This document shows, piece after piece, positions 1,307 to 17,728 of a DNA stretch of 50,881 nt (its first letter is position 1; each line of letters begins with the position of its first letter). The notes under the pieces were generated by a model. The model was not told the DNA's origin, made no database searches, and saw only the letters and a list, made by a program, of their open reading frames with translations. The DNA comes from a virus, in IMG/VR virus record IMGVR_UViG_3300046516_000490, positions 1 to 50,881 of that record. One strand, given 5' to 3'. The position numbers were made by a program, and so were the translations under genes.

Positions 1307-1936
1307 ATGGCTACGCCGTCCAAGCCCGCCGACAATCACAGGTCTGCGCAACACGCGCCCGCGAAGCACGAAGAGCCACCCAAGCCCGAAGCCCATAAGG
1401 CCCCCGCGCGCCGCGCGGCGCGTGCAGCGGACCCCTACCCCGTCCTGATCGATGCTGCGTCGCTGTACAAGAATGGCCACCGCATCGCCAAAGAGGGCGA
1501 CCCGCCCGAAAAATGGATGGTGATGGGCACACTCGGCGATGGTACGCCGGTTCATCAGGTGCCGCTGACGCCCGAGATTGAAGCGGAGATCAGGTCCGGG
1601 GCATTCTATTTGGCCGACGGGCTGACGACGGGGGACGCCGCGCCGCCCATGGGGCCGCCGGTTGTCGTTGATAAGCCCTATGTCGGCGGCGTTGCGACAG
1701 TCGGCAGCACGCTCGACTGCACCCAAGGCAACTGGACGAACGTCCCGACCAACAAGGTCTACCAGTGGCTACGCAGCGGGACGCCAATCGACGCTGCGAC
1801 GACCGCCAGCTACCTCCTCGTGGCGGACGATGTCGGGGCGATGATGTCGTGCGAGGTCACCGCGATCAACGCGAGCGGGCAGGCAAGCTCGACCAGCAAT
1901 GAAGTCGGCCCGGTTGCCGCGCTGGCTAGGAAGTAA
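1307..1936 (+). CDS. Ig-like domain protein, possible capsid or virion decoration
   Basis: A 209-residue protein. The first 40 residues are Ala/Pro/Lys/His-rich and probably disordered. Residues about 43-105 form a unit with PYPVLIDAASLYKNGHRIAKEG. The last 90 residues look like a bacterial immunoglobulin-like domain: GSTLDCTQGNW, a YQWLRSG core, a DVGAMMSCEVTA strand and a final NEVGPV. Such domains are common on phage virion surfaces and may bind carbohydrate weakly. An in-frame stop at 1292-1294 blocks any longer start; GAGGG at 1293-1297 is suitably spaced for the ATG. It lies just upstream of the portal gene. The virion role is an inference. Confidence 0.75.
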   Translation: MATPSKPADNHRSAQHAPAKHEEPPKPEAHKAPARRAARAADPYPVLIDAASLYKNGHRIAKEGDPPEKWMVMGTLGDGTPVHQVPLTPEIEAEIRSGAFYLADGLTTGDAAPPMGPPVVVDKPYVGGVATVGSTLDCTQGNWTNVPTNKVYQWLRSGTPIDAATTASYLLVADDVGAMMSCEVTAINASGQASSTSNEVGPVAALARK

Positions 1937-1942
1937 GCGCAA

Positions 1943-4687
1943 ATGGCGGCCGGACTGGGTGCGATTCGTTTGCCGGGATCGCTGGGCGACGGCATGGATG
2001 ACATGGCGCCGCAGCGCAACAACGCGCGTCAGGGCAGCGTCATCATCGATCTGAACGACGATGACGAGCCCGACATTCCCGATGTCGATACCGACAAGGG
2101 CGTCGAGATCGAGGGCGGCGGGGTCGTCGTCCGTATCGGCCCGGCGCTCGCCAAGCCGAAGGAAGACCTCAAGTTCTACGACAACCTTGCCGAAGCCCTG
2201 CCAAGAGAGGTTCTCGGCGGGGTCGCCGACGAGCTGCTGCTGCGCATCGAGGAGGACAACCGCTCGCGGCAGGAATGGCTCGACACTCGGGGGCGCGGCA
2301 TCAAGATCCTTGGCCTCAAGATCGAGGAGATGCGGTCGAGCGGGCCAGACGGCTCAGCGCCGCTGGAGGGCCAGTCGCAGATCCGCGCCAGCCTGCTGGC
2401 TGAGTCGGTCGTACGATTTGGGGCGAACGCCTTCGCCGAGATGTGCCCTATCGACGGCCCGGCCAAGGTCACTGAGGATACCGCCGCTGCGACCGTGGAG
2501 CTTGACGACCTCGCCGACGCCTTGGAGACGACCCTCAACCATTACCTGACGGTGGTCGATAAGCCGTGGGTTCCCGATACCGATTCGATGCTGCTGCGGA
2601 TCGGCGTCGACGGTTCGGTGTTCAAGAAGGTCTATCACGACCCCATTCTGCGCCGTCCGATCTCGCGCGCCGTCTATGGCGAAGACGTGATCATCAACAA
2701 TTCGGCGACCTCGATTTACGACGCCAAGCGGATCACCCACCGGGTGATGATGGCGCCCTCGACCCTCCGCCGCATGCAGCTCGCTGGCGCCTATCTCGAC
2801 ATCCCGATTGGCGATCCCGGCTGGAAGCAGAAGGATGCGCCCGAGCTACAGTCGGAGGAGGTCAGCGGCGTCCGCAAGAATGAGAGCCCCGAGCGCGACG
2901 ACCGCGATCACGAGATCTTCGAATGCTATTGCGAACTCGATCTTGAGGGTTTCGAGCACAAGACGAAGGGCAAGCCTGACGGGCTCGCGGTGCCTTACAA
3001 GGTCGCCATCGACCGTGAATCGCGTGAGGTGCTGGAGATCCGGCGGAATTACAACGAAGACGACGAGATGTGTCTGCCGAAGACCTTTTTTGTCCAGTTC
3101 CCGTTTATTCGCGGGTTCGGCATTTACGGCATCGGCCTCTCGCACCTTCTCGGCAACATCGCCAACGGCATCACCGCCGCGTGGCGGGAGTTCCTCGACG
3201 CCGGGATGTTCTCGAACTTCCCCGGCCTATTGGCTGCCAAGGGCTCGGGACGGCAGGACAATTCGGTCATCCGAATACCGCCCGGCGGCATGAAGGAGAT
3301 CGAAACCGGCGGCCTGCCGATCCAGCAAGTCGTGATGGGCATGCCCTACAAGAGCCCCGATGCGACCTTCGTCAGCTTCATCCAGCAACTGAATCAGGAA
3401 GGGCAGCGCCTCGGCGGCACGGCCGACATCATGGTCGGGGAAGGGCGGCAAGATGCACCTGTGGGCACGACGCTGGCACTCATCGAGCAAGCCATTAAGC
3501 CGCTCCTCGCCACCCACAAGCGACTGTGCGCCGCCCAGTCAGATGAGCTTCAACTTCTGGTCGAACGATTCCGAGAAGACCCCGAAGCCCTGTTCCGCCA
3601 CAAGCCGAGCGCCAGCGGCGTGTCGTGGGACGAGCAGCTCGTCGTCAAGGCGCTGAACACCTACCAGATCGTCACCCGCGCCGATCCGAACACCGCTTCG
3701 CACTTGCAGCGCATGCTGCGCAACGCCGCCCTCTACATGATGGCGAAGGACGACCCACCCGCCTTTGACCTCACCGCGATCCGGCGCACTTGCATCCGGG
3801 GCATTGGCTTCGCCAACCCCGACCAGTTCTTGAACCAGAACCCGCAGCCGCCGCCGCCATCGGCCAAGGATCAGGCCGCCGCGACCACCGCTCAAGCCGC
3901 GCTCCTCGACGCGCAGGCCAAGATGGGCCAGCTCCAGCTTGATACTAAGAACGCGCCGATGGAGGCGCAGGCGCGGCAGATGGACGCGCAGGCGAAGATC
4001 GTCGGCGCTAAGGCTGGCGTCCAGAAGCAGCAGATGGCCACCCACACGGCGACCATCCAAGCCCAGAACGAGCAGATGAAGCCCGCCATGGAGCAAATGA
4101 AGCACCAGCACGAATCGCAGGAGAACCAAGCAGATCGTCAGACCGAGCTGATCAAGGAGCAGATGCAGCATGCCCACGAGATGCGGCTTGCCGGGATCGA
4201 GCAGCAGGGCGACCTCCAGAAAGCCCAGACGGACCATGCGGGCCGTCTAGCGGAGGTTGGAGCTAAACACCAGACTGAGATTGCTAAAGCTGGGATGGAT
4301 CAGCAGGGGCGGATGCAGGAGGCCCAGTTCGGGCACCAAGCCGCGCTTGCCGAGGGCCAGCAGGCCCATCAGACGGCGATGGCGCAGGGCGCGCAGCAGG
4401 AGCATACCGCTCTCGCGCAGGGCGCACAGAAGCATGCCACCACCATGGCGCAGGGCGCGATGCAGCGCGACACGTCACTGGCGCAGGGCGAGCAGCAGAA
4501 CCAAGGCAAGCTTCAGCAGATCAAGGCGGCGCCCAAGCCAGCGGCTGGCGCGAAGAAGAAGCCGGGACGGGCGACCGGAGGCCGGGTGACGACGCCGTTC
4601 GGCGAGGCCCGTCAGGCGCCTGACGGCCACCACTACGTCAAGCACCCCCACACCGGGCAGTATTTCCGGGTGAAGAAGGGGGAGTGA
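1943..4687 (+). CDS. Portal protein with a long Gln/Ala-rich C-terminal extension
   Basis: A 914-residue protein. Residues about 60-620 have the character of a podovirus-type portal: acidic N-terminus, LADALETTLNHYL helix, an HRVMMAPSTLRRM segment, a long conserved stretch around LPKTFFVQFPFIRGFGIYGIG, and an ADIMVGEGRQDAPVGTTLALIEQA helix like those of large head-tail connectors. About 640-867 is an unusually long Gln/Ala/His-rich coiled coil with short repeats such as HQAALAEGQQAHQTAMAQGA. The last 40 residues carry GRATGGRVTTPFGE, one example of the GGR motif found in other virion proteins here. A portal dodecamer at the capsid vertex would be the DNA gate and packaging dock. AGGAAG at 1928-1933 precedes the ATG. 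Confidence 0.85.
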   Translation: MAAGLGAIRLPGSLGDGMDDMAPQRNNARQGSVIIDLNDDDEPDIPDVDTDKGVEIEGGGVVVRIGPALAKPKEDLKFYDNLAEALPREVLGGVADELLLRIEEDNRSRQEWLDTRGRGIKILGLKIEEMRSSGPDGSAPLEGQSQIRASLLAESVVRFGANAFAEMCPIDGPAKVTEDTAAATVELDDLADALETTLNHYLTVVDKPWVPDTDSMLLRIGVDGSVFKKVYHDPILRRPISRAVYGEDVIINNSATSIYDAKRITHRVMMAPSTLRRMQLAGAYLDIPIGDPGWKQKDAPELQSEEVSGVRKNESPERDDRDHEIFECYCELDLEGFEHKTKGKPDGLAVPYKVAIDRESREVLEIRRNYNEDDEMCLPKTFFVQFPFIRGFGIYGIGLSHLLGNIANGITAAWREFLDAGMFSNFPGLLAAKGSGRQDNSVIRIPPGGMKEIETGGLPIQQVVMGMPYKSPDATFVSFIQQLNQEGQRLGGTADIMVGEGRQDAPVGTTLALIEQAIKPLLATHKRLCAAQSDELQLLVERFREDPEALFRHKPSASGVSWDEQLVVKALNTYQIVTRADPNTASHLQRMLRNAALYMMAKDDPPAFDLTAIRRTCIRGIGFANPDQFLNQNPQPPPPSAKDQAAATTAQAALLDAQAKMGQLQLDTKNAPMEAQARQMDAQAKIVGAKAGVQKQQMATHTATIQAQNEQMKPAMEQMKHQHESQENQADRQTELIKEQMQHAHEMRLAGIEQQGDLQKAQTDHAGRLAEVGAKHQTEIAKAGMDQQGRMQEAQFGHQAALAEGQQAHQTAMAQGAQQEHTALAQGAQKHATTMAQGAMQRDTSLAQGEQQNQGKLQQIKAAPKPAAGAKKKPGRATGGRVTTPFGEARQAPDGHHYVKHPHTGQYFRVKKGE

Positions 4688-7600: not shown

Positions 7601-10600
7601 CCACCTAAGCTGGACGCCCGGCGCCGATCAGGCGGCGCGCTACGATCTGAGCAAGCAGATCGATGAATTGCACTACACCCCCGCAATGTCTGGTGGTCTT
7701 TTGCGAGGAAAAAAGGACGGACAATGGGTTGTTACGCAGAAAGGCGTCTCGCCGGATGATCTCGCTGGGGCGGTTGGGAAAGAGGTAGCGGATAAGCTTC
7801 TTGCTGCACCGCTCAATCACGAGCGATTTGAGGCTGGCCCAACGCATGAATTAAAGGGTCAAGACCTTCAGGTCGGCGGCGAGGGGATGAAGGGGTTCTA
7901 CGACCGGCAAGTGCCCAATCAGCTCGCCAAACTCGCCAAGAAGCTCGACCCCAACGCCAAGATCGGCACGAGCCAGATCAATGCGCCAGTAAGGCGAGAC
8001 AATCCGATGGGCACCAAGACCGTCCCCTCGCTGGAGATTACGCCGCTGATGCACGAGCGGATCTTGCAGGGCCTGCCGCAATACCAGCGTGGCGGCCGGG
8101 TTGGGTTCGCAGACGGCGGCTCCACTGCCGCCGTCCCAGAGCATCCTGATACCTTGCGTCTCCAGCACGAAGCCCTAGTGAGCGGGAGAAAGGAGCTTGT
8201 CTTTTACCCCGGAGGCGAGGGCTTCAACAGAAATAACTTTGCCGGTGTGGGTTCCAATCTTGGCGTGGTGCAGTTCCCGAATAAGGATACGGCTGTTTTT
8301 CGTAAGGACGGCCCAAACAGGCTTACGCCTAAAGGCGTCAAGGCAGCGATTCGGGCGGGCAGGCTTCACCATTTACTTGGCTATCCGGTATCCCGCGAAG
8401 AGGCGGTCGCCCGCACCCAGCCGCCGTTTAACGAGCAAGGGCTCGGTATTGTCGAGCGCGCTCCTGATGGCACGGAGGCCAGAGCCGCTGCCGCGACAGA
8501 CGCCACTGCCGCTACTCAGGCGGCGGCAATGGAGAGGTCGAAGCTTTCGCCGGAAAACACGATAAGCGCCGAGTCCCCGGAAAAGGTTTTGGCTGGCCGG
8601 GCGGGGTTCGCAGACGGCGGCGCGCTGGAGCCGGTCGAGGGCAATCCATTCGAGGACATGAGCGCGACCCTGTCGGCGAGGCCCGCCCCGCTGCATGATC
8701 GTACGATGCGGCCGACCGATGTCGCGCGGGCCAAGGGCTTCCCCGAGCCGCGCTCGCCGATGCACGAGCGAATCGCCGCCGCGTCGCGGGATGATCTGGA
8801 AGACCCGTCGATCACCGCCCATGGCGGCTACGGCACGCCGATGAACTCGGCCGACATCCTCGCAGGGCGCGCCGGGCCGGTGCAGGAGATGCGACCCTAC
8901 GAAGATCCGACATTTAGCGGGCAGCTTGGCGCGGCGATGGAGCATGGCGCTGAGCGGCTGGGCGCGCCGATGTCAGTCGTACGGTCGGCTGGCGATATCG
9001 GGCAGACGGTGGGGGAGTTCACCGGCCTCGACATGCCGCATCACGCCGAGCAAGCCGTGCTCGCCGCGAAGCATGGCGACTACGGCGCGGCGGCAGGCGA
9101 GGCGCTCGGCGCGTTCCCAATGCTCCCTGCCGCTGGGGCTGCTCGTCTCCCGGTGCGGGGAAAGATCACGACGGCGATCCGCGAAGCCGCATCAAAAGGG
9201 AATGATGCTCGGGTGACGGCGTTGCAGACGATCCATGACGCCCAGCAAACAAGGCTCAATGAGGACATCGAGAGGCTCAACCAGCTTACGCCGGTCCCTG
9301 TTGCCCCGCGCCGCTCCCCCGGCGGGAGCCAGAACCCGGGCACGGCAATTCGCGACAAGCCATATGATGAGGCGCTCTCCTTGGCGGATACCGATCATCA
9401 CCTGATCCGCGATACGGGCGCCAACCCCAGCTCCTACTACGTCGGCGGCCCGACGACCGTGAAGAAGCCTGCCGATCTCACTGCGCTGCGTCGCCAGAAT
9501 TATGGCTATCTGGCGGGCAGGCCTGATGGGTGGGATTGGTACGACCGCTATCGCGCCACGCTTGGCGAGCTTCATGGCGACACGCCGCCGCCCGGCAATG
9601 CTGTCCCGGCCGGGACATGGTCAGCGAGCATGGAGGGCCAGTGGTCGGCCCAGCACCCTCCTGCGACCGAGTTCGGCATGGCGCAGAAGGAGCGCTCGGG
9701 GGCGATTGCTGGCATCCCGCAGCGCGCCAATACCGACGTGCAGCATGAAGCGTTCAACCGAGCCATCGCGACAGGTGACCCGAATGAAATGCAGCTAGGC
9801 AACAAGACAGGCCAGTACGCTCAATTGATTGAGGCGTCGCGCGGTTCTTTGCCGCCGCAGGCGACGGGGGTCAACGACTTTCGCCATGCCACGCAATTGG
9901 GTTACCGCGAACCGGACGGGAGCCCGTGGGACCGTGCTCTAGGCGAGGCTCAGCATCGCTTTGTCGATAATGAAACCGCCAAAATGGTGAAGTGGGCGAA
10001 TGACAACAGGATAGCAGGCAAGACCGACTGGACCGGCGAACAGGTGCAAGCTGCGATCTGGACCCGGCAGAAGGCCGAGCAGGAGATGGTTGACCGGCCA
10101 AATCTTGTTGAAGAGCGCATAAGGCAGGGAATGAGCCCAGAAGAGGCCTATGAGCATGCGTTCAACAATGAGGCATGGCCAGCGGGCAATGCGACGATAG
10201 CTGAACATCTGCCCGGGTTTACGACCTACACCACGCACGAAGCGCAGCCGGGCCTAGAGATCGCGAAGACTGGTCATCTGCCGAAGGCAGCGCAAATGAC
10301 CGACGAGGAGCGCCAGCAGTTCAAAGATAACCCCTTATCGAGCTGGCTGAGCCCGAAGGGGCATGACCGGGTGTATTCCGGCCTCGGCGTCGCCGGGACG
10401 CCGCAAGTGTCGATGATGACGCGGCCAGCGAGCCCGAGCCTTGGCAAGTTTCCTACCGATGCTGGCGTTGAATATAACCCGTCCACTACCGGGCGGGTCA
10501 TCACGGGGCATGGAGCGAGGGAGTCGGAAGAGAAGGGGGCGAAGGCCGTTGCGGCTTACAACCCCGCCGACGAGGCGATTTTGACGGCTGGCGAGACGTT

Positions 10601-11342
10601 GAGAGGTGCAATAGACGCCCAGAATGCGAGCGCAGCGCACCGGATCTTCAAGGGGGGATCACCAAAAGAGATGAACGCGCTCGATATTCCGCTTAGGGGC
10701 GCGACGCGCGAGCAACTGGCCCAGTTGGAAAATATAGGCAGTAAATATGGGCTACATGACGCTATCGACCGGGGGCAAAACGGCGTCACCCTAACCAGCT
10801 TCAGGGATCAACCTCCCGATCTCGCTGGGAGGTCGTATAGGGCGCTCCTCAACGATCTTCAGGCTGGCGGTTTTGACGCGAGCAAGATCGAGCGCGGCAA
10901 GATCGCCTCGATTTATGCTGATCTGGAAAAGCAATGGGCGGCAGGGCCGGGGTCCGGTCAGGTGACCCAGTTGATCCTCGATAAGCTCAGTACGCCAGAA
11001 ATGCGCGAGGCTTTTGCTCAGAACCCGCATCTTGCCGAGATCGCCCGCAACCGCATCCTGCGCGACGACGAGGCCGCCAAGCAATGGGGCGGCCAGCGCT
11101 TAGACCTACGCAACTTGCGGGCGATCATCGCAATGGGGAAGGACTGGCCCGACAGGCTTGAGCAAGCGCGTAAGTACGGGCTGAAAGCTCTTGTTCCAAC
11201 GGCAGCGGCGGCGGGTATCGCACTCTATCCCGAGGCAGGCCTCCCGGCGGGATTAGGGAATGATGCCAATACCAGCGATCAGACGCCGTCAGCACGGCCG
11301 ATGGCGGGGGCAGGCCGAGCGAGGCGAGATCAACTCCAATGA
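4689..11342 (+). CDS. Giant polyvalent protein (2,217 aa) with HExxH zincin and LPD-like modules
   Basis: A GTG start lies one base after the portal stop. Module one (to about residue 450) holds LHEVQHGVQ (HExxH at 300-304) and GEAEARNVQ (near 407), a pattern I recall from zincin-like metallopeptidase domains of phage polyvalent proteins. Module two (about 460-1140) has HMEELQSDWGQKGRDEG near 845, TNSWTDLGLKRAL near 950 and VGGEGMKGFYD near 1062, typical of large-polyvalent-protein-associated domains. Module three (about 1145-1300) ends in an EARAAAATD-type segment. The rest (to 2217) is unrecognised. GGRVGFADGG (near 450 and 1135) and AGRAGFADGG (near 1302) sit at the module borders. Known polyvalent proteins are thought to be injected with the DNA and to act on host defences. 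Enzyme activity here is inferred. Confidence 0.85.
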   Translation: MAVEDLGDAGDWRAFPVDHDPFADVPDSSASQDRNRDLGYQRFSGHVAAGPSGFGRLDQMVRESAAPDAPEAQPPEKQYYGGQYGAALEHGFQNLAGGIGGAIGGATDLVGQGVGRVAGAVGVPDPEGLGRAVTQMLDSPVHGPTPSSAAHGMAAAHGLGGLSEYAPAMLLGPLARTADQGKLAKAQTMWARGALPQEIYDDTKWLKTPKDQWQFEAPDTAARYVEDKKARILGDVLHLPETYAAYPGLQYIPLSYMPKGKEGGLRGSFTASRQAPGSMQFPPGEMELKQGLGSPSVPLHEVQHGVQSIERFPMGGMPKRPYETNANFDMWEQFRRNNLDKLVLNPPKNPVEWGKYMGIEDPTAAEFEYDEFKRAHDLGVKTNSLLPKVISYAERKANHDYYLSHYGEAEARNVQHRWEEAQKLGGYDKLPHPYKTLDTTYVSFPPYAGGGRVGFADGGVLTDDNTVWPEDQPEQRPSNVPPPQGFQWSPMSAPGLVGGLYNMAKSGLGLTGDVASGKARMEDPETQRRVNDMAGLVTLGAGAMPAEAGALSMGARNLSPLGFYSHGADVAANLPQKVGTTQQMRAALDKAGVKPVEMEGVGLGAEAMPYGWKNPPVNPSVSSEELAGRFRQASPQLQETVLANKGSGNSARRYLYVDPETGAPSRAEGATRIDNPAWAPWRPPPQFEQHSLPGGQNYREVLMHLPANQISDADALAEAQRFSNRIGEDWNRVAPADQARYIQTARESLAERGGSPSNFKSSHWDQPNVVAHLRLNDRTGVADLNDIRSRAASALGARPQDLGSGAAAAAVQKGAITPEEAASLSNASGWINGFKGKPGIEPRLLHMEELQSDWGQKGRDEGFADPKVIQAHEDYVADMRRRMAEGMTQDGIASGVDPVRSGQLAKSTAEKMEPWQLAKYLGEDQTLRDVYAKRVAEEKKIPPGPYVTNTNSWTDLGLKRALIEAARGDYTHLSWTPGADQAARYDLSKQIDELHYTPAMSGGLLRGKKDGQWVVTQKGVSPDDLAGAVGKEVADKLLAAPLNHERFEAGPTHELKGQDLQVGGEGMKGFYDRQVPNQLAKLAKKLDPNAKIGTSQINAPVRRDNPMGTKTVPSLEITPLMHERILQGLPQYQRGGRVGFADGGSTAAVPEHPDTLRLQHEALVSGRKELVFYPGGEGFNRNNFAGVGSNLGVVQFPNKDTAVFRKDGPNRLTPKGVKAAIRAGRLHHLLGYPVSREEAVARTQPPFNEQGLGIVERAPDGTEARAAAATDATAATQAAAMERSKLSPENTISAESPEKVLAGRAGFADGGALEPVEGNPFEDMSATLSARPAPLHDRTMRPTDVARAKGFPEPRSPMHERIAAASRDDLEDPSITAHGGYGTPMNSADILAGRAGPVQEMRPYEDPTFSGQLGAAMEHGAERLGAPMSVVRSAGDIGQTVGEFTGLDMPHHAEQAVLAAKHGDYGAAAGEALGAFPMLPAAGAARLPVRGKITTAIREAASKGNDARVTALQTIHDAQQTRLNEDIERLNQLTPVPVAPRRSPGGSQNPGTAIRDKPYDEALSLADTDHHLIRDTGANPSSYYVGGPTTVKKPADLTALRRQNYGYLAGRPDGWDWYDRYRATLGELHGDTPPPGNAVPAGTWSASMEGQWSAQHPPATEFGMAQKERSGAIAGIPQRANTDVQHEAFNRAIATGDPNEMQLGNKTGQYAQLIEASRGSLPPQATGVNDFRHATQLGYREPDGSPWDRALGEAQHRFVDNETAKMVKWANDNRIAGKTDWTGEQVQAAIWTRQKAEQEMVDRPNLVEERIRQGMSPEEAYEHAFNNEAWPAGNATIAEHLPGFTTYTTHEAQPGLEIAKTGHLPKAAQMTDEERQQFKDNPLSSWLSPKGHDRVYSGLGVAGTPQVSMMTRPASPSLGKFPTDAGVEYNPSTTGRVITGHGARESEEKGAKAVAAYNPADEAILTAGETLRGAIDAQNASAAHRIFKGGSPKEMNALDIPLRGATREQLAQLENIGSKYGLHDAIDRGQNGVTLTSFRDQPPDLAGRSYRALLNDLQAGGFDASKIERGKIASIYADLEKQWAAGPGSGQVTQLILDKLSTPEMREAFAQNPHLAEIARNRILRDDEAAKQWGGQRLDLRNLRAIIAMGKDWPDRLEQARKYGLKALVPTAAAAGIALYPEAGLPAGLGNDANTSDQTPSARPMAGAGRARRDQLQ
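8698..8707. repeat. Palindrome ATCGTACGAT inside the polyvalent gene
   Basis: An exact copy of the 10-base palindrome. Arg is encoded by CGT, which I do not see often elsewhere in the gene. Confidence 0.65.
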
Positions 11343-11511
11343 GATCGGCCTTGTCGCAGGCGACATGGAATGGGATGCTATGTGTCCCCCCAGACCACCA
11401 AAACTTTGGCCTCCAGACGCAAATTGGCATCAGGGCTTCAACCCTGACCACCGCTGGAGCGGCGATCAGGCTGATCAGTCCCGTGAGGAATCTCCGCCGG
11501 GGTAGGATCAT
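11125..11511 (-). CDS. Small exported protein with twin-arginine-like signal
   Basis: A 128-residue minus-strand gene, last of a five-gene island. It opens MILPRRRFLTGLISLIAAP: a twin Arg, Phe-Leu and hydrophobic core, like a Tat signal, with probable cleavage after an Ala-containing segment around residue 20-26. I recall many short proteins with this RRRFLTGL...AAPAIVR opening in Rhizobiales phages, without known function. GGAAGAG about eight bases upstream supports the start. Its last 218 bases overlap the 3' end of the giant polyvalent gene in antisense, so either tail may be poorly conserved; the first 60 residues are the best supported part. Confidence 0.6.
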   Translation of the reverse strand: MILPRRRFLTGLISLIAAPAVVRVEALMPICVWRPKFWWSGGTHSIPFHVACDKADLIGVDLASLGLPPPSAVLTASDRWYWHHSLIPPGGLPRDRVRYPPPLPLEQELSARTYALAQACRASPSPLR

Positions 11512-11635
11512 CGTTCAGCTCTTCCTCTATGTCGGGCTTCCAGTCGTCGGGCAGGCCGTACTTCTCCCGTAAGACCTCTTGGTATTCGAGGCCGGTGCAG
11601 ACCCAGACCTCCCACATGTCGTTCCAATGCATCAC
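11438..11635 (-). CDS. Small acidic protein of the minus-strand island
   Basis: A 65-residue protein starting MMHWNDMWEVWVCTGLEY; the middle is acidic (DIEEELNDDP) and the end polar. The first codon is GTG (11635) in a GTGA overlap with the stop of the preceding gene; an ATG follows immediately and could also serve. Its 3' end overlaps the start of the RR-signal gene by 74 bases in another frame. It has no signal peptide and no recognised family; the call rests on operon position and coupled start. Confidence 0.55.
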   Translation of the reverse strand: MMHWNDMWEVWVCTGLEYQEVLREKYGLPDDWKPDIEEELNDDPTPAEIPHGTDQPDRRSSGGQG

Positions 11636-12003
11636 TTGATCCCCACGGCCTGCTTGGCGGCTTCCTCGGCCTTCAGGATGATCATCAGCTTGTTGATCTC
11701 ATCCTTCTTGCCCGCGAGCGCCGCGTCATGCTCCTTCTGATCCGCGATCTGTTCAGGGGTGCGCGGGTCGGGTTCGCCAATGTTCTCAATCGCGGGAAGC
11801 GGCATGGTCTTGACCGGCGGCGCGGGGTCGGGCGGCGTTGCGGTGATCTCGACGTAGTACGACTTGTCGGGCGCGGGTGCGTGAAGCGAAACGTGCGTGA
11901 CGCCGCAGCGCTGCGGATAAGGGTATTTCCACACCGAAAAGCGATGGCAGGCGGTTGCGGGCTGGGCGCTGACCAGCAGCGTGGCGAGGGCGATCTTGAT
12001 CAT
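11632..12003 (-). CDS. Secreted CHRFSVW-type small protein
   Basis: A 123-residue protein from the ATG at 12003, chosen because it forms an ATGA overlap with the upstream stop; an ATG four codons earlier is possible. MIKIALATLLVSAQPATA is a clear signal sequence, followed by CHRFSVWKYPYPQRCGVT with two cysteines that could form a disulfide after export. The middle is proline-rich (TPPDPAPPVKTMPLP) and the C-terminal 45 residues are a charged helix. I recall similar ACHR(F/Y)S.W.YP.PQRC proteins in alphaproteobacterial phages and prophages, function unknown. A periplasmic role, for example in lysis or superinfection exclusion, is only a guess. Confidence 0.7.
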   Translation of the reverse strand: MIKIALATLLVSAQPATACHRFSVWKYPYPQRCGVTHVSLHAPAPDKSYYVEITATPPDPAPPVKTMPLPAIENIGEPDPRTPEQIADQKEHDAALAGKKDEINKLMIILKAEEAAKQAVGIK

Positions 12004-12248
12004 TGGCTGCACCATTCACAGTTGGGGGTTTCGCATTTGGCAACGCCGTAGTTCATGCGTTGCGCCACGTCGTCGAAGTCGGGCGTCCATGGCTGGCGGG
12101 AGCTATCGACCAGCTCGTGGATATCGGCGCATTTCCAGACATGGCCATGCGGCGCCTCGACCCGCAGCTCGTTGTGGCCAAATCCGCGATCATACTCCAC
12201 TGTCGCGCCAACAGCTTTGGCGAGGCTTTTGATGCCTCTAAGGTTCAC
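12000..12248 (-). CDS. Small conserved hypothetical protein
   Basis: An 82-residue protein with a GTG start in a GTGA overlap with the upstream stop. It carries GIKSLAKAVGATVEYDRGFGHNEL and a HVWKCADIHELVD segment, and ends CETPNCEWCSQ. The C-x4-C-x2-C end with an upstream Cys could bind a metal, but the spacing fits no family I can name. There is no signal peptide. It lies in the middle of the minus-strand island and is translationally coupled on both sides. Confidence 0.65.
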   Translation of the reverse strand: MNLRGIKSLAKAVGATVEYDRGFGHNELRVEAPHGHVWKCADIHELVDSSRQPWTPDFDDVAQRMNYGVAKCETPNCEWCSQ

Positions 12249-12469
12249 GGGGTCGTCTCCTTGGTTTCGAGGCCCTTGAGGGTCCAGCGGTGGGTGACCG
12301 GGTCGTCCGACTCGACGGCGCGCCGGTTCTCGGCCCCGGCCTTGCAGCCCATCCAGCGGTTCTGAAGGTCGATGGCGTAATTGATCGCCTCGCCTGCGGT
12401 GGCGAAGCGCAGGCCGTTGCCGACCCAGCTATTTTCGCCAACGCCTTTGATCTCGGGAATGAATGACAT
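12245..12469 (-). CDS. First gene of the minus-strand island, small hypothetical protein
   Basis: A 74-residue soluble protein (MSFIPEIKGVGENSWVGNGL...INYAIDLQNRWMGCKAGAENRRAVESDD). The layout, with a short helix AGEAINYAIDLQNRW and then a beta-like VTHRWTLKGL tail, resembles small phage proteins of unknown role. GAGGAG (minus strand, 12475-12480) is five bases from the ATG, the best ribosome binding site in the island, which marks this as the leader gene. The candidate promoter is at 12493-12521. Confidence 0.7.
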   Translation of the reverse strand: MSFIPEIKGVGENSWVGNGLRFATAGEAINYAIDLQNRWMGCKAGAENRRAVESDDPVTHRWTLKGLETKETTP

Positions 12470-12492
12470 GGGGGCTCCTCTTGTCGCAGTAA

Positions 12493-12521
12493 CAGCTACA
12501 CTCGACCCTCCTCATTGTCAA
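12493..12521 (-). promoter_or_regulatory. Candidate promoter of the minus-strand island
   Basis: On the minus strand a perfect TTGACA (12516-12521) is followed after 17 bases by TAGCTG, a poor -10 box. It is placed about 25-50 bases before the first gene of the island. Its -35 box overlaps the one proposed for the opposite strand, so the two transcripts may interfere. Confidence 0.45.
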
Positions 12522-12543
12522 CCATGAGATTTCCGCGTAGCAA
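12515..12543 (+). promoter_or_regulatory. Candidate divergent promoter for the head-gene operon
   Basis: TTGTCA (12515-12520), 17 bases, then TAGCAA. It reads toward the basic RGG-rich gene and the capsid genes and shares its -35 region with the minus-strand promoter. The -10 box is weak. Confidence 0.35.
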
Positions 12544-12587
12544 TTGCAGCGAGGCAGATGCGGGATGTGAGAACCGGGAGGCTCCCT

Positions 12588-13601
12588 ATGACGGGGCTGA
12601 CGCCGAAGGCTCATACCCAAGCGGTCCTCAAGAGGATGAATCTGGCGGGCTCTGTTCCGGGGAATTTGAACCGGGACAACGACGCCAGCGGCGACAATTA
12701 CGGCCTCGCCTCCGCGCGCTCATCCGACTCTTCCAGCTTCCAGATGGACGGCGCGCCGAAGAGCCCGCACATGGGCAGGCCCGGGCGCCAGAGCGGCGGG
12801 CGGATCTCTGGCGACCTCGTTCGCACCCGGCGCACCCCCGAGGAAACCGCAAGCGACATCGCGAATGAGGACAAGGTCGTCAACGCTCTGGCGAAGGATC
12901 GTCGCAGCGAAGGCGCTAGGGACGCTGTAAACGGGGCTAAGATTTTGCGTATGTCGCCAAGCCAGCGCGACGCCTACGCCAATGAAAAGGACGGGGGGCG
13001 GATTGGCCGCTGGAAGGGCGGGGCCGCTCGGGACAAGCTGGGGCAGAAAGACGCTTTGGCCTCGGATAACCCCGGTTACGGGGATGCGATGCCGGGCGAG
13101 CGAGAATATTACAACTTCATTCGCGGCGGCCTTGGCACGACGAAGGTCGGAGCGCCGATGGGCAAGGGCGGCGTCGGGTCTGACGCAACCGCCGAGCCGA
13201 CGAACCAAGCCAAGGGTGGCCGAGTCGGCCGCGCGCGGGGCGGGCGCACCAAGGGCAAGACGACCGTCAACGTGATCATCGGCGGGCAGAAGACGATGCC
13301 GCCGCCAGCTCCCATGATGCCTCCTCCGCCGATGGCGGCCTCCGGTCCCGTCGGCCCGCCACGGCCTCCCATGCCACCTCCCGGCATGGGTCCGCCGCCC
13401 GGCGGCGCGCCTCCGGGCATGGGGGGTGGACCCCCTCCCGGTATGCCTCCGATGCTCCGGGCGCGGGGTGGGCGAATCGAGATCTCGACCCCCGGCAAGC
13501 ACGACTACGGCAAGGCTGGCGTGCCGCACGGCAAGATCGATGAGAAGTACGGCGGCGGCTCTGGCCTCGGCCGACAGGCGAACGCGCGGCGCCAGAAATG
13601 A
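12588..13601 (+). CDS. Basic RGG-motif virion-type protein with proline-rich linker
   Basis: A 337-residue protein. The ATG at 12588 is preferred over one at 12558 because GGGAGG at 12576-12581 is ideally spaced. The sequence is low in hydrophobic residues and likely mostly disordered. It holds repeated Gly-Arg units: MGRPGRQSGGRISG, KDGGRIGRWKGG, AKGGRVGRARGGRTKGK and RARGGRIEI. A run of about 55 Pro/Met/Gly residues (roughly 245-300) separates the last units. The same GGR units occur in the portal tail and the giant proteins, suggesting a shared binding or processing signal. Its position after the portal block and before the capsid block fits a head component or nucleic-acid binder, but no family was recognised. 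Confidence 0.75.
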   Translation: MTGLTPKAHTQAVLKRMNLAGSVPGNLNRDNDASGDNYGLASARSSDSSSFQMDGAPKSPHMGRPGRQSGGRISGDLVRTRRTPEETASDIANEDKVVNALAKDRRSEGARDAVNGAKILRMSPSQRDAYANEKDGGRIGRWKGGAARDKLGQKDALASDNPGYGDAMPGEREYYNFIRGGLGTTKVGAPMGKGGVGSDATAEPTNQAKGGRVGRARGGRTKGKTTVNVIIGGQKTMPPPAPMMPPPPMAASGPVGPPRPPMPPPGMGPPPGGAPPGMGGGPPPGMPPMLRARGGRIEISTPGKHDYGKAGVPHGKIDEKYGGGSGLGRQANARRQK

Positions 13602-13828
13602 CAGACCAGACTTTCGGCGAGCGCGCGGTCGGGCTGTCGTTCAATCCGAGCGGCGACGACGCGGTGCATCTTTTGAAGAGCGCTGCGGCGTCGTTCATCG
13701 ACCTCTGCAATGAAGCGCGCGAGCTGACGCAAGACCCCGAGATCAAGCGGATGTACTCGATTGCGATCACCGAGGCGCAGACCGCGCAGATGTGGGGAGT
13801 CAAGGCGGCCACATGGAAGGCGGCCTGA
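13598..13828 (+). CDS. acb2: Acb2/Tad1-hairpin-like protein, candidate anti-CBASS cyclic-nucleotide sponge
   Basis: A 76-residue all-helical protein, ATGA-coupled to the previous gene. It shows the features I associate with the Acb2 / Tad1-hairpin family of phages: GERAVGLSFNPSG (FNPS at 15-18), a first helix DAVHLLKSAAASFIDLCNEA, a short turn TQDPE, and a second helix EIKRMYSIAITEAQTAQMW ending in GVKAAT (67-72). Family members form hexamers that soak up CBASS cyclic di- and trinucleotides and so block effector activation. The length and the two-helix layout agree. The assignment is by recalled motif, not by search. Its place among structural genes suggests late expression, unusual for an anti-defence gene. 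Confidence 0.75.
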   Translation: MTDQTFGERAVGLSFNPSGDDAVHLLKSAAASFIDLCNEARELTQDPEIKRMYSIAITEAQTAQMWGVKAATWKAA

Positions 13829-14047
13829 TTGGACGCCGCCAGCCTCTATTTCGGAGGCAAGCTCTTGGAGATCATCCGCGCCAAGCAGGCTGAGATGTCG
13901 AAGCCCTTATTGCTCGGGCAGGCGCTCGACTACCCCGACTACAAGGCCCGCGCCGGGTATCTGAAGGGCTTAGCCGATGTCGTCGGCTGGATGAAATCAA
14001 TCGACATGGAAGATAAGGAGACGGCGTCAGCATGGCGACAGGATTAG
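13829..14047 (+). CDS. Small helical phage protein (TTG start)
   Basis: A 72-residue protein (MDAASLYFGGKLLEIIRAKQAEMSKPLL, then DYKARAGYLKGLADVVGWMKSIDMED). It starts with TTG immediately after the stop of the Acb2-like gene; GGAAGG at 13815-13820 supports this start. I recall similar short phage proteins opening (M)DAA.LY.GGKLLEIIRA, placed near head genes, of unknown function. Two amphipathic helices are predicted by eye, with no membrane segment. Its end overlaps the cochaperonin start by 16 bases. Confidence 0.7.
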   Translation: MDAASLYFGGKLLEIIRAKQAEMSKPLLLGQALDYPDYKARAGYLKGLADVVGWMKSIDMEDKETASAWRQD

Positions 14048-14442
14048 TTCAGAAGCTAGCGCACAAGGAAGACCCAGCCACCGTGATCTGGCTCGCGCTG
14101 GGCAATGCGCTCGACGAGTTCGACATCGCCGCGCAAGGCGTCCTGATCGCCATGTATGAACGGCCGGATGACGTGAAGACCGAAGGCGGCATCCTCCTCC
14201 CGCACGCCCATGTGAAAGAGGACGAATATCAGAGCCGGGTCGCGCTGGTGGTGAAGCTCGGCCGCCGCGCCTTCACTGACGACGAGCATGTGAAGTGGGA
14301 CGGCTACCACTGCGAGGTCGGCGACTGGGTCGCGCTGCGTTCCAGCGACGGCATGAAGCTCAGCGTCAGGGGCGTCCACTGCCGCCTGATCTCTGATGTG
14401 TACCTGAAATTGAAGATCCCTCATGCGGATGCGGTGTTCTGA
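14032..14442 (+). CDS. GroES-like cochaperonin (Cpn10)
   Basis: A 136-residue protein. Residues about 36-58 (VLIAMYERPDDVKTEGGILLPH) match the Cpn10 pattern of a first beta strand, a mobile-loop region and the G-I-x-L-P element. RVALVVKLGRRAF (69-81) and CEVGDWVALRSSDG (94-107) fit the barrel strands. No GroEL gene is present, so it would cap the host chaperonin to help fold the capsid protein, as T4 gp31 does; that parallel is an inference. The N-terminal 30 residues (HKEDPATVIWLALG) are longer than in bacterial GroES, as is common in phage versions. It directly precedes the scaffold gene, with a stop-start overlap. Confidence 0.85.
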   Translation: MATGLVQKLAHKEDPATVIWLALGNALDEFDIAAQGVLIAMYERPDDVKTEGGILLPHAHVKEDEYQSRVALVVKLGRRAFTDDEHVKWDGYHCEVGDWVALRSSDGMKLSVRGVHCRLISDVYLKLKIPHADAVF

Positions 14443-15389
14443 TGCCCCCCGATGACGACGAGATCGCCAAGACCCAGAAGGAGCATGGCGCCTATTTTCG
14501 CGCTTCGACCGAGGAAGAGGAATCGCCAGAAGGGCGTTTCGATCCGGTCGATGTCGATCTGAACGCGCCAGAGAAGGGCGATAAGCCCGATACCGGCGCC
14601 GCCGCCGAGGAGCTGCGCGCCCAGCTAAGGCAGGCGCAGGAAGCCGCCGCCATGGCGACGCGCGCGGCGCAGGAACAAAGCCAGCGGGCGGCATACGCCG
14701 AGCAGCGCGCCGTCGGTTCGACGGTCGGCATGATCGATTCGGCGCTCGAAAACGCGCAGTCGGTCGCCGCCAACGCCAAGGCGAAATTCCAAGCCGCGCT
14801 CGATGCGGCGGACCACGCGGTCGCCGCGCAGGCGCAAGAGGAACTCTCCGACGCCCGCCATAACCTCCTTCGCCTGCAAGAACAGCGCGCGATGGTCGAG
14901 GCGCAACTGCGGCAAGCGCAGCAACAGCCGCAAAGGCAGCAACCGCCGCAAGAGCCGCAGAGCATCGACACGATCTCTCGCGATCTCGTCAACGCAGGCT
15001 ATCCCCGCTCGGCCGATTGGCTCCGCTCGCATCCCGAATGGGTGAGCAGGCCAGACCTCCTGAAGCGGGTGGCGAGCGCCGACAACCACCTCGTCGATAA
15101 CAAGGGGTTTGTGCGGGAGTCGGACGAGTATTTCGCCGCGCTGGAACAGGAGCTGGGCGTGAACCAACAGCAGCGGCGCCCTGATTACGGTCAACAGCGC
15201 CGCAGCGCCGCCGCCCCGACATCCAATTCCGCTCCGAGCCTGCGCACCGGCCAGCCGATGATGCGTTCGCACGTCACCCTGACCCCGGCGCAGCGCGAGG
15301 CGGCGGAACTGAGCGGCATGACCGAGCGCGAATACGCGCAGGAGTTCGAAACGGCGAGGGTCAACAACAAGCTGATTGGATATCGATGA
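14442..15389 (+). CDS. Scaffold-like capsid assembly protein
   Basis: A 315-residue acidic, Ala/Gln/Glu-rich protein. The disordered acidic N-terminus (MPPDDDEIAKTQKEHGAYF) is followed by a long coiled coil (about 55-165), a Gln/Pro hinge (QPQRQQPPQEPQ), a conserved unit around YPRSADWLRSHPEW, and a C-terminal helix TPAQREAAELSGMTEREYAQ. Position, length and composition fit a phage scaffolding protein, which guides capsid shell assembly and leaves before or during packaging. The start codon overlaps the cochaperonin stop (TGATG). No protease gene was recognised, so removal by cleavage is not supported here. Confidence 0.8.
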   Translation: MPPDDDEIAKTQKEHGAYFRASTEEEESPEGRFDPVDVDLNAPEKGDKPDTGAAAEELRAQLRQAQEAAAMATRAAQEQSQRAAYAEQRAVGSTVGMIDSALENAQSVAANAKAKFQAALDAADHAVAAQAQEELSDARHNLLRLQEQRAMVEAQLRQAQQQPQRQQPPQEPQSIDTISRDLVNAGYPRSADWLRSHPEWVSRPDLLKRVASADNHLVDNKGFVRESDEYFAALEQELGVNQQQRRPDYGQQRRSAAAPTSNSAPSLRTGQPMMRSHVTLTPAQREAAELSGMTEREYAQEFETARVNNKLIGYR

Positions 15390-15937
15390 TGAGCGACGCC
15401 GCCACCGCCCGAGTGGGCAATAAGGAAACCGTGCGCAGCGAGGCCGAGGTCGCGTCAGCCAAGCCGCAGATCGTCGATCACGAGGCCCGCGCCCGGGCGC
15501 GCGTCGCCGAGATCAGGGCAATCCATGGCGATGACGACTTCAGCGAGGTGTTCGTCGATAAATGGTATGCCGAAGCGCCTCCCGGCTGGGTCTACAACTG
15601 GAAGACGCACTCGGTTTGGAACAAAGAGTATCCGCAGTATCTGAGCAACATGCAGCACAATGGCTGGAGCCCGGTCCCGTCGCACCGCGTGCGCCACCTC
15701 CTCTACCCCGAGTATGACGCCGAGAACACCATCATCGACGGCATGATTCTGATGGAGCGGCCGAAGGAAATCAACGACCGGGTGAACAAGCGCGATCACC
15801 GTCTCGCCATCGACGCCGTTCGCAACAGCGAGAGGAAGCTCTCGGACGCACCGAGCGGCACCGCGCCGCGCACCGCCTTCGCGGACACAATGCCCAAGGT
15901 GCGTGGCCACGTCGGCCCGGTCACCATCGACGATTGA
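15386..15937 (+). CDS. Conserved phage head-region protein
   Basis: A 183-residue soluble protein. The hallmark is APPGWVYNWKTHSVWNKEYP followed by NGWSPVPSHRVRHLL, IIDGMILMERPKEINDRVNK and a helical basic segment. I recall a family with PGW.Y.WK...., GW.PVP and (V/M)LMERP motifs next to capsid genes of many short-tailed phages, of unknown function. ATGATG at the start overlaps the previous stop, so either ATG may be used. A structural or assembly role is inferred from the context only. Confidence 0.75.
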   Translation: MMSDAATARVGNKETVRSEAEVASAKPQIVDHEARARARVAEIRAIHGDDDFSEVFVDKWYAEAPPGWVYNWKTHSVWNKEYPQYLSNMQHNGWSPVPSHRVRHLLYPEYDAENTIIDGMILMERPKEINDRVNKRDHRLAIDAVRNSERKLSDAPSGTAPRTAFADTMPKVRGHVGPVTIDD

Positions 15938-15962
15938 CATAAATCGGTGATGTGCATTAAGA
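15934..15962 (+). promoter_or_regulatory. Candidate capsid-gene promoter
   Basis: A perfect TTGACA (15934-15939) overlaps the stop of the upstream gene; after 17 bases comes TTAAGA, a weak -10 box. The 149-base gap before the decoration-type gene (15938-16086) holds no reading frame and only short GC hairpins. A dedicated promoter for the abundant capsid proteins is plausible here. Confidence 0.4.
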
Positions 15963-16086
15963 CTTGCGCTTAGCCGGTCCTTCCGGCCTCACGGCCCCGT
16001 GGCGCTCTCGGGCTCGTGCATAATCCAAGCTCATTGGCGGCGCTCGTCGATGGCGATTCTTCTAACCCTTGCGGGAGAAGTTCGTC

Positions 16087-16749
16087 ATGGCGAATACGTT
16101 TGCCCCCTTTGGCTTCGCAGAATCCCACCGCCTCGGCGCTGCGCCGACCTACCAGCTCGGCGCCGCGCGCCGCTGGATTCTTTCCAGCAACACTACTGCG
16201 ATCTATTTTGGCGACCCCGTCATCCAGCTCTCGTCTGGCTACATTGGCCAAGCGGTCCCCGGGGCTAATCAAGTCAGCGGTATCTTCGCAGGCTGCGAGT
16301 ACATCTCCAAATCCGCCAAGAGGGTCATTTGGAGCCCATGGTGGCCGGGAACCGGCGATGCCGTAGCCGCTCCAGCAGGCGGCCAGAACACCGGCTTCGA
16401 CGTTATGGCGAAGGTGATCGACGACCCGATGACCGTCTTCCGCGTTCAGGCGAATGGCCAGCTCGCGGTGGGCCAGATCGGCATGAACGCCACCTTCACC
16501 TTCGGACTGACCGGGACCACGTTCAACGCGGCTGGCGCCCTCCCTGCGGCGAACCAGAGTAGCGGTATCAGCAACGTCGCGCTCGACATCACCCAGACTG
16601 CGCCTGCGGCGACCGCTGGGCTTCCCTTCCGCATCCTCGACTTCATCCGTGAGCCGCCGGGGGCGCCGGGAACGGACTTCACGAGCGCCTACGGATGGGC
16701 GTTCGTCACCTTCAACACTCAGGACTTCAAGACTTTAACCGGGATCTAA
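16087..16749 (+). CDS. Capsid decoration or minor structural protein
   Basis: A 220-residue protein. The ATG at 16087 is chosen because GGGAGAAG at about 16073-16080 is well spaced; a longer start at 16069 has no such signal. It begins MANTFAPFGFAESHRLGAAP, has IYFGDPVIQLSSGYIGQA and GIFAGCEYIS, and is beta-rich and Gly/Thr/Ala-rich afterwards. I recall phage structural proteins with the ANTFAPFGF opening and a YGDPV core, beside major capsid genes. It probably coats or stabilises the capsid; that is inference from location and composition. Confidence 0.75.
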   Translation: MANTFAPFGFAESHRLGAAPTYQLGAARRWILSSNTTAIYFGDPVIQLSSGYIGQAVPGANQVSGIFAGCEYISKSAKRVIWSPWWPGTGDAVAAPAGGQNTGFDVMAKVIDDPMTVFRVQANGQLAVGQIGMNATFTFGLTGTTFNAAGALPAANQSSGISNVALDITQTAPAATAGLPFRILDFIREPPGAPGTDFTSAYGWAFVTFNTQDFKTLTGI

Positions 16750-16800
16750 AACGATCTGTGACGGCCCTGTCCTGCCCGTCGCACATAGTGGAGAAGTTCA

Positions 16801-17715
16801 ATGGCCGTCTCCGTCGCGCAGGCGTATGATCTGCTCTTCCCGGGTTTGCGCAAAGTCGCGGGCGAGTACAAGGATATCGACCGGATCTACCCTAAGATCT
16901 ATCAGGTCGATAAGTCCTACATGGCCGTGGAGCGTACAGCCTCCATGAGGTTCCTCGGCCTTGCCGGTCTAAAGAACGAAGGCCAGCCAACTATTATTGA
17001 TAATCAGGCTGGCGAAAGGTATATCTACAATCAATACCATAAGGAGATCGGACTTGGATACGCTTTCACCAGAAGAATGGTAGACGATAATCTTTACAAA
17101 AGACAATGGCGGCCATCTAATCTTGGTCTTCAGAAGTCGTTCAACCAGACGAAGGAAATCTACGGGGCCACTCCACTCAATACGGCGACCGTCTATGACC
17201 CGTCCGTGCTTGGCGATCAGGTTTCGCTCTGCAATCTGAACCATCCGATTGATGGCGGGTCGATCCCAAATCGGTTCACGGTCGATATGGATCTCAACGA
17301 GGCCTCGCTCCTCAATGCGCAGGCGTCGATCAGGGGGCTCTTCCGCGACAATGCTGGCTTGCGCATGCAGGCGCGAGCGAAGAGGCTGATCGTCCCCATC
17401 GCTCTTGAGCCTATCGCCATCCGCCTCCTGAAGACTGTCCTAAGACCGGGCAGCTCCGACAATGATGTCAACGCAATTCTGGAAACAAGCGGCGGTATCC
17501 CTGACGGGTTCCTCGTCCACGACTACCTGACATCGCCGACGTTCTGGTTCGTATTGACAGATCAGGAAGGCCTGTTGTATTTGCAGCGCGTCGCCTTCGA
17601 AATGTCAATGCAAGTAGACTTCACAACCGACAACCTCCTTGTGAAGGGTTACGAGCGTTATAGTTTCGGATACTTTGATTGGCGAGCTATCTGGGGCTCG
17701 TTCCCGTCGCAATAA
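16801..17715 (+). CDS. Major capsid protein (Mu gpT-like style)
   Basis: A 304-residue protein. It has an N-terminal helix (VAQAYDLLFPGLRKVAGEY), MRFLGLAGLKNEGQPTIIDN, then GERYIYNQYHKEIGLGYAFT with TRRMVDDNLYK, an Asn/Ala-rich stretch leading to ARAKRLIVPIALEPIA, and a C-terminal domain ending LLVKGYERYSFGYFDWRAIW. The order of early helix, substrate-like strand (GLGYAFTRRMVDDN), spine-like helix and final GYERYSFG strand resembles Mu-type gpT / HK97-fold capsid proteins. It follows the cochaperonin, scaffold and decoration genes. GGAGAAG precedes the ATG. No cleavable delta domain is obvious. Confidence 0.8.
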   Translation: MAVSVAQAYDLLFPGLRKVAGEYKDIDRIYPKIYQVDKSYMAVERTASMRFLGLAGLKNEGQPTIIDNQAGERYIYNQYHKEIGLGYAFTRRMVDDNLYKRQWRPSNLGLQKSFNQTKEIYGATPLNTATVYDPSVLGDQVSLCNLNHPIDGGSIPNRFTVDMDLNEASLLNAQASIRGLFRDNAGLRMQARAKRLIVPIALEPIAIRLLKTVLRPGSSDNDVNAILETSGGIPDGFLVHDYLTSPTFWFVLTDQEGLLYLQRVAFEMSMQVDFTTDNLLVKGYERYSFGYFDWRAIWGSFPSQ

Positions 17716-17728
17716 CTGAGGCACATCT

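What the first reader, a model, noticed from the sequence alone, without database searches (positions are those of the whole stretch)
13598..13828. Acb2-like cyclic-nucleotide sponge, candidate anti-CBASS gene inside the head operon
The 76-residue protein carries the motifs I associate with the Acb2/Tad1 hairpin family (GER.V..SFNPS near the start, GVKAAT at the end of helix two). Family members bind CBASS cyclic nucleotides and so protect the phage. Here it is coupled to a basic structural-type gene and followed by GroES and scaffold genes, a late-gene setting that is odd for an anti-defence factor. If it is packaged or made late, it may protect progeny maturation rather than early infection.
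Basis: partly seen in the sequence, partly recalled or inferred. Interest (0 to 1): 0.72.

Follow-up and report, generated by a model that had tools for sequence, protein, structure and literature searches.

The report
Swappable phage nucleotide-sponge gene
This phage carries, between its head-building genes, a small protein of a family that soaks up the chemical alarm signals bacteria use against phages, and in related phages the same spot is empty or holds a very different member of that family, as if it were a plug-in slot.

Summary
The 76-aa ORF at 13598-13828 is a real, selected gene and a sequence member of the Acb2/Tad1 hairpin family: PF24729, 39.1 bits against a cut-off of 27; 35 of 35 aligned sequences match the same model. 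AlphaFold gives a confident short helix plus a long two-helix hairpin. A lysine and a threonine that align with Acb2 pocket residues are kept in 35/35 and 34/35 rows; the pocket tyrosine has no clear counterpart, so ligand preference may differ. Structure searches did not discriminate. Binding and CBASS inhibition are untested.

New here: the gene is an optional cassette. Of 28 related contigs that show both slot borders, 7 carry this type, 9 a divergent PF24729 type nearer to PaMx33 Acb2, and 12 neither (8 of them empty). Four flanking-gene trees need 8-11 state changes. Both types also alternate at one slot in two other phage lineages. This favours a shared sponge function over a structural role. 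A head-gene setting is frequent in this subfamily, not odd; packaging has no support. Best reading: a nucleotide sponge, probably anti-CBASS.

The parts
13598..13828 (+). Acb2-like sponge gene ('type A', 76 aa)
   Evidence: PF24729 39.1 bits; 39 IMG/VR relatives; hairpin model pLDDT 95.4; purifying selection; absent or replaced at the same place in relatives
12558..13601 (+). 347-aa gene of unknown function, left border of the slot; stop overlaps the sponge start (ATGA)
   Evidence: No family match; conserved at the slot in 28 loci
13829..14047 (+). 72-aa gene of unknown function, right border of the slot
   Evidence: No family match; conserved at the slot in 28 loci
14032..14442 (+). GroES-like co-chaperonin gene
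   Evidence: Cpn10 22.2 bits, cut-off 21.1; PHROG GroES E 2.7e-08
14442..15389 (+). 315-aa gene, putative scaffold (inferred from position only)
   Evidence: PHROG of unknown function E 8.9e-06; Pfam match below cut-off
15386..15937 (+). 183-aa conserved head-operon gene; in L053 and L054 a type-B sponge gene lies right after it
16069..16749 (+). 226-aa conserved head-operon gene before the head protein
   Evidence: PHROG of unknown function E 2.4e-08; conserved
16801..17715 (+). major head protein, used to fetch relatives
   Evidence: PHROG major head protein E 3.5e-05; 62% to an annotated major capsid protein
1943..4687 (+). portal protein
   Evidence: PHROG portal E 5.6e-19

Best explanation
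The gene makes a small cyclic-nucleotide sponge of the Acb2 family. It most likely assembles as known members do (a hexamer of helical hairpins) and binds, without cutting, second messengers of host abortive-infection systems, CBASS first of all, so that the effectors are not switched on. It is an optional cassette between portal and capsid genes, probably translated together with its neighbours, so the sponge would be made at about the time when head proteins appear. Shown here: family membership by sequence, predicted hairpin fold, purifying selection, optional presence, and replacement by a divergent member of the same family at the same place. Inferred: hexamer, nucleotide binding, CBASS as the target, and co-expression with the capsid.
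For: PF24729 at 39.1 bits, cut-off 27; 35 of 35 type-A rows match it. Model pLDDT 95.4 with helices 6-10, 21-43, 47-71, the layout reviews give for Acb2 (passages). K27 and T58 align with PaMx33 K26 and T4 T68 in 35/35 and 34/35 rows. The same slot in relatives holds a second PF24729 branch (57.3-66.7 bits for four tested) whose profile finds only Acb2, Tad1 and Vs.4 chains among its ten PDB hits at E<=10 and which keeps Y and K of PaMx33 Acb2 in 7/7. A/B/neither changes 8-11 times on four flanking-gene trees and A/B alternate in two further lineages. 33 of 79 ORFs found by the type-B profile also score with the type-A profile at E<=1e-3, linking the branches.
Against: No binding data. The tyrosine whose loss disables T4 Acb2 falls on a gap in all 35 type-A rows. 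Direct links to solved Acb2 are weak: no PDB hit for the single sequence; with the family profile T4 Vs.4 comes third at E 0.12, behind two designed proteins; hhalign probability 26% to T4 Vs.4 and 7% to PaMx33 Acb2 and 82% to type B over only 26 columns; BLASTP to type B finds nothing. Foldseek has no PDB match at E<=0.001, and VIA-align ranks Vs.4 third at Z 7.3 among unrelated helical proteins. The host and its defences are unknown.
Confidence: 0.75

Rival explanations
1. A sponge of the same fold whose main target is not a CBASS signal: gcADPR of Thoeris, cyclic oligoadenylate of type III CRISPR, or another nucleotide.
For: The Pfam family also holds Tad1, described as binding gcADPR and cyclic trinucleotides (passages of PMC12043709). 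The tyrosine position differs in type A, so the dinucleotide pocket may differ.
Against: Type A has no beta-sheet domain such as the one described for Tad1. The other occupant of the slot resembles PaMx33 Acb2, including Y and K.
Confidence: 0.15
2. A head-assembly or structural accessory protein, as the position between portal and capsid genes suggests.
For: Position between portal and head genes; frequent head-gene neighbours elsewhere.
Against: Missing in 12 of 28 syntenic loci counting the type-B-free ones, cleanly so in L049, whose head protein is 96% identical; replaced by a divergent PF24729 protein in 9 of 28; found in unrelated neighbourhoods including early and replication regions; no head family match.
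Confidence: 0.04
3. A hairpin protein that has lost nucleotide binding and does something else.
For: The tyrosine position is not kept in type A.
Against: K27, R51, Q64, M65, V68, K69, A70, T72 and W73 are invariant over 35 rows; purifying selection; repeated exchange with type B.
Confidence: 0.06

Closest known systems
Acb2 of Pseudomonas phage PaMx33 (ORF24; matches PDB 8h2j and 8ixz, deposited as p26)
   Same: Same Pfam hairpin family as the window protein by PF24729 and by T4 Vs.4's match to it; short helix plus two long helices; aligned pocket lysine K26 = K27
   Different: Hardly alignable directly (hhalign 7%); window protein is shorter (76 against 93 aa) and lacks a clear counterpart of Y11
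Acb2 of phage T4 (Vs.4; PDB 7uq2)
   Same: PF24729 71.4 bits; threonine T68 = T58; best natural PDB hit of the family profile, though only E 0.12
   Different: Y8 has no clear counterpart; T4 gene lies outside the head genes, next to regB
Type-B Acb2-like proteins at the same slot (e.g. L066:4665-4895, L071:4489-4773)
   Same: Same place in the head operon, same Pfam family
   Different: BLASTP finds no alignment; type B keeps the Y and K of PaMx33
Tad1 (Thoeris anti-defence 1)
   Same: Shares the hairpin domain; the Pfam model is named for both
   Different: Tad1 is described with an N-terminal beta-sheet domain (passage); the window protein has no strand

Membership tests
Acb2/Tad1 hairpin family (PF24729) | Match to the curated model above its cut-off | tested here: met
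   39.1 bits, cut-off 27, model 3-57 of 58; 35 of 35 type-A rows match
[quoted passage not shown]
   AlphaFold model, helices 6-10, 21-43, 47-71, pLDDT 95.4; layout of Acb2 from review passages. Prediction only; PDB comparison did not discriminate
Acb2 | Pocket lysine (PaMx33 K26; its role is recalled, from no call) | tested here: met
   K27 aligned with it in 35/35 type-A rows
Acb2 | Threonine T68 of T4 (T68M lowers binding; legend in PMC12657230) | tested here: met
   T58 aligned with it in 34/35 type-A rows
Acb2 | Pocket tyrosine (T4 Y8, Y8A is binding-deficient; PaMx33 Y11, role recalled) | tested here: inconclusive
   MAFFT puts a gap there in 35/35 type-A rows; Pfam match offsets would put invariant F15 there. 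No type-A row has a tyrosine at the position
Acb2 | Homo-hexamer | not testable with these tools
   Only monomers could be predicted
Acb2 | Binds cyclic di- and trinucleotides and inhibits CBASS | not testable with these tools
   Needs experiment
Tad1 | N-terminal antiparallel beta-sheet domain before the hairpin | tested here: not met
   76 aa, no strand in the model
Phage head or assembly protein | Match to a head or packaging family | tested here: not met
   Only PF24729 in Pfam; PHROG matches all of unknown function; nothing in NCBIfam
Phage head or assembly protein | Kept in close relatives that share the head operon | tested here: not met
   Type A in 7, type B in 9, neither in 12 of 28 syntenic loci, including the nearest relatives L049 and L050

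The most novel reading that the evidence does not exclude
The head operon of this phage clade has a dedicated, repeatedly reused cassette site at which divergent nucleotide sponges with different ligand preferences are swapped, placed so that the sponge is made with the capsid genes because head components are what triggers CBASS or Thoeris signalling. Type A (FNPSG motif, no clear pocket tyrosine) would then be a sponge subfamily with its own ligand spectrum.
Probability: 0.33. Interest if true: 0.68.

Novelty: new member of a known kind. Interest (0 to 1): 0.5.

Why it matters
The protein adds a divergent, apparently untested branch to a known sponge family. The wider point is a natural experiment: in three phage lineages two hardly alignable branches of one sponge family replace each other at the same place, and in one of them the place is also often empty. 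If the branches bind different signals, the exchange would tell which signals phages meet, and the capsid-operon position makes it directly testable whether phages time their sponges to the trigger.

Tried and rejected
Structural or assembly role: judged unlikely because close relatives lack the gene cleanly and other neighbourhoods carry it.

Tad1: rejected as a membership, no beta-sheet domain in the model.

Packaged or virion-delivered sponge: nothing found for it; not tested.

Fold comparison with the PDB: uninformative. Foldseek had 116 matches at E<=10 and none at E<=0.001. VIA-align put T4 Vs.4 third of 196 aligned chains at Z 7.3, rmsd 2.6 over 61 residues, not above unrelated helical proteins.

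Transcription signals: no sigma-70-like promoter in 11300-18000 (shuffles 1.4), and three terminator-like sites, fewer than in shuffles (5.0), all at 16031-16176, that is between the sponge and the head gene. If one of them were real it would weaken co-transcription with the capsid; such scans decide nothing.

A small ORF beside the sponge in relatives (LGDRxR family): no Pfam match for L067 or PHROG match for three members, and a poor model, pLDDT 65.5; no fold search was made.

Literature: searches listed no paper that by title or abstract describes sponge genes exchanging at a head-operon slot; I read passages of some, none whole. The held library lacks most subscription papers; the original Acb2 papers and the prohead-protease paper were not held.

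Rows set aside: of the 80 head-protein loci (best 80 of 110), 52 did not show both slot borders and were left out of the 28 counted; L077 (type A) and L087 (type B) of these 52 were used in the trees. The 28 hold near-copies: identical in the head gene are L049/L050, L067/L074 and L086/L088 (with L087), and L092/L093 nearly so. Type-A neighbours were taken from 32 of 39 loci; of the 122 neighbours listed there 95 were scanned: 21 on the other strand were left out on purpose and 6 on the same strand by oversight. Near-copies such as L008/L010 are in that tally. No background frequency of head-gene neighbours was measured. For type B only the best 80 of 370 loci were kept. In one search the gene picker did not label the sponge in L002, L183 and L184 (nor in L168, L173, L174, L175, L181); their places are.

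Full report
OBSERVATION. The ORF at 13598-13828 exists as described. Its start overlaps the stop of the upstream 347-aa ORF (ATGA), and the next gene starts directly after its stop. The window is a virus record of 50,881 bases. The gene is under purifying selection: against L001, 88% identical, pN/pS is 0.15; over 45 type-A pairs the median is 0.49 and the maximum 0.88, most of these pairs being distant.

FAMILY. Pfam PF24729, Acb2/Tad1 hairpin domain, matches at 39.1 bits (cut-off 27, E 8.5e-10, model 3-57 of 58) and is the only family listed at E<=10. NCBIfam gives nothing; PHROGs give families of unknown function. It is the only PF24729 match in the window. Relatives are encoded by 39 IMG/VR loci, 158 phage records at E<=1, 146 of them of Flavobacterium phages, and 34 bacterial genome loci. 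I aligned 34 relatives with it (A1); all 35 rows match PF24729. Direct comparison with solved sponges is weak: no PDB hit for the single sequence; with the profile, T4 Vs.4 is third at E 0.12 behind two designed proteins.

FOLD AND POCKET. AlphaFold2 on A1 gives pLDDT 95.4 and pTM 0.83, with helices 6-10, 21-43 and 47-71, the layout that review passages give for Acb2 (PMC10419184; PMC12043709). PDB fold comparison did not discriminate. In an alignment of type A, type B, 33 bridging sequences, T4 Vs.4 and PaMx33 Acb2, K27 falls on PaMx33 K26 in 35/35 type-A rows and T58 on T4 T68 in 34/35. The tyrosine (T4 Y8, PaMx33 Y11) falls on a gap in all 35. Pfam match offsets suggest that invariant F15 may stand there (T4 residue 7 is model position 1 and L066 residue 22 position 2; window residue 16 is position 3), so the point is open. 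Y8A is called binding-deficient, and T68M is said to lower binding, in legends of PMC12657230 (passages); the roles of Y11 and K26 of PaMx33 are recalled and come from no call.

THE SLOT. With the head protein as query I fetched 80 related loci (best 80 of 110) and searched them with the window's genes and the A1 profile. 28 show both borders, the 347-aa and the 72-aa gene. In 7 the slot holds type A (L061, L076, L078, L079, L081, L083, L089). In 9 it holds a different small gene, 'type B' (L066, L067, L068, L071, L073, L074, L085, L086, L088). In 12 it holds neither: 8 are empty (gap of 29 bases or less) and 4 hold other ORFs (L064, L065, L082, L097), that of L097 an HNH endonuclease (PHROG E 4.8e-66). 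Counts are and contain near-copies. In L049, whose head protein is 96% identical, the flanks match the window at about 80% DNA identity on both sides and the gene is missing exactly between its neighbours: window 13597 and 13830 correspond to L049 5008 and 5013.

TYPE B IS ALSO A SPONGE-FAMILY GENE. Four type-B proteins score 57.3-66.7 bits to PF24729. The ten PDB sequences that their profile finds at E<=10 are all Acb2, Tad1 or Vs.4; the best is 'Acb2 homolog 43' at E 0.00092, the others are at 0.06 or above. Two points needed other calls: the entry labelled 'ABC transporter ATPase' shares its sequence with 8smd, a Tad1 structure (PMC11722364), and 'p26' is PaMx33-type Acb2. Type B keeps the Y and K of PaMx33 in 7/7. 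BLASTP finds no alignment with the window protein, but 33 of 79 ORFs found by the type-B profile also score with the type-A profile at E<=1e-3. In L053 and L054, type B lies at a second place in the same operon, between the 183-aa and 226-aa genes.

EXCHANGE. On a head-gene DNA tree the three states (A 9, B 10, neither 12 rows, window included) need 8 changes; on groES 8, on the 183-aa gene 9, on the 226-aa gene 11. Starred branches include window (A) with L049/L050 (neither), 100/97, and L071 (B) with L077 and L083 (A), 100/99. Gain, loss or exchange is therefore repeated; the flanking genes recombine too, the trees differ in detail, and direction cannot be read from the counts. Two other lineages show A/B alternation at one slot. 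L002, L003 and L007 (A) and L183 and L185 (B) share flanking proteins 34-71% identical, one of them primase-like, and the other two with a match hit families of unknown function, so a head module is not shown there. L012 (A) and L184 (B) share a terminase (75%), a portal (72%) and a scaffold-like gene (55%) around the slot.

NEIGHBOURHOOD. Of 95 same-strand neighbours within two genes of type-A loci, the commonest named families are portal (6), terminase large subunit (4) and scaffold (3); exonuclease, helicase, single-strand binding and other replication families occur once each (first 25 of 123 families shown; examples). In phage records, relatives lie before the terminase (Pmp11), between terminase and GroES-portal (DSL-LC05), in the early region of an N4-like phage (EcP1), among internal virion proteins (PS3), upstream of the terminase (PSTCR8lys) and near a single-strand binding protein (FCV-1). 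A late or head setting is frequent but not obligatory. No background frequency was measured.

MECHANISM. Most likely: hexameric sponge, sequestration of cyclic nucleotides, no effector activation. Shown: membership, predicted fold, selection, optional cassette, exchange with a second branch. Inferred: oligomer, ligand, CBASS target. The head position would fit reports that head components are sensed: prohead protease of Bas13 interacting with a CBASS sensor (passage of the review PMC12409349), the major capsid protein activating Thoeris (abstract of PMC11312562), and capsid mutations in CBASS escape of acb2-deleted phages (PMC10419184). Against it, the same passage of PMC10419184 says that the wild-type capsid gene alone did not induce CBASS-dependent toxicity. 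The timing link is a hypothesis that nothing here tests.

NOVELTY. The protein is a new member of a known kind. The exchange of two deeply diverged branches at one slot, in three lineages, is what I consider new; searches listed no description of it in the held library, which lacks most subscription papers.

Noticed in passing
L067:4777-4986, L068:806-1039, L079:730-963, L073:4763-5014 and others (not found in the window): A second small gene of unknown family (LGDRxR motif, about 70-84 aa) follows the sponge gene, or stands alone, in the slot of many relatives: 20 ORFs at E<=1e-3. No Pfam or PHROG match in the members tested; poor model, pLDDT 65.5.
   Followed up: partly
L053:1389-1628 and L054:6741-6971: In two relatives a type-B sponge gene lies at another place of the same head operon, just before the 226-aa gene and the head protein.
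   Followed up: partly
L097:3278-3877: The slot of one relative holds an HNH endonuclease gene, as if the place were also used by homing elements.
   Followed up: no
window 1307-1936; L002, L003, L007, L183, L185, L198, L219, L220: Relatives of the window's 209-aa gene (weak matches to virion structural and Ig-like families) lie directly or closely upstream of type-A or type-B sponge genes in eight loci of other phages, while in the window it lies before the portal.
   Followed up: partly
window 4689-11342: A 2217-aa ORF between portal and slot region matches a large polyvalent protein-associated domain (LPD23, 34.9 bits, cut-off 27).
   Followed up: no
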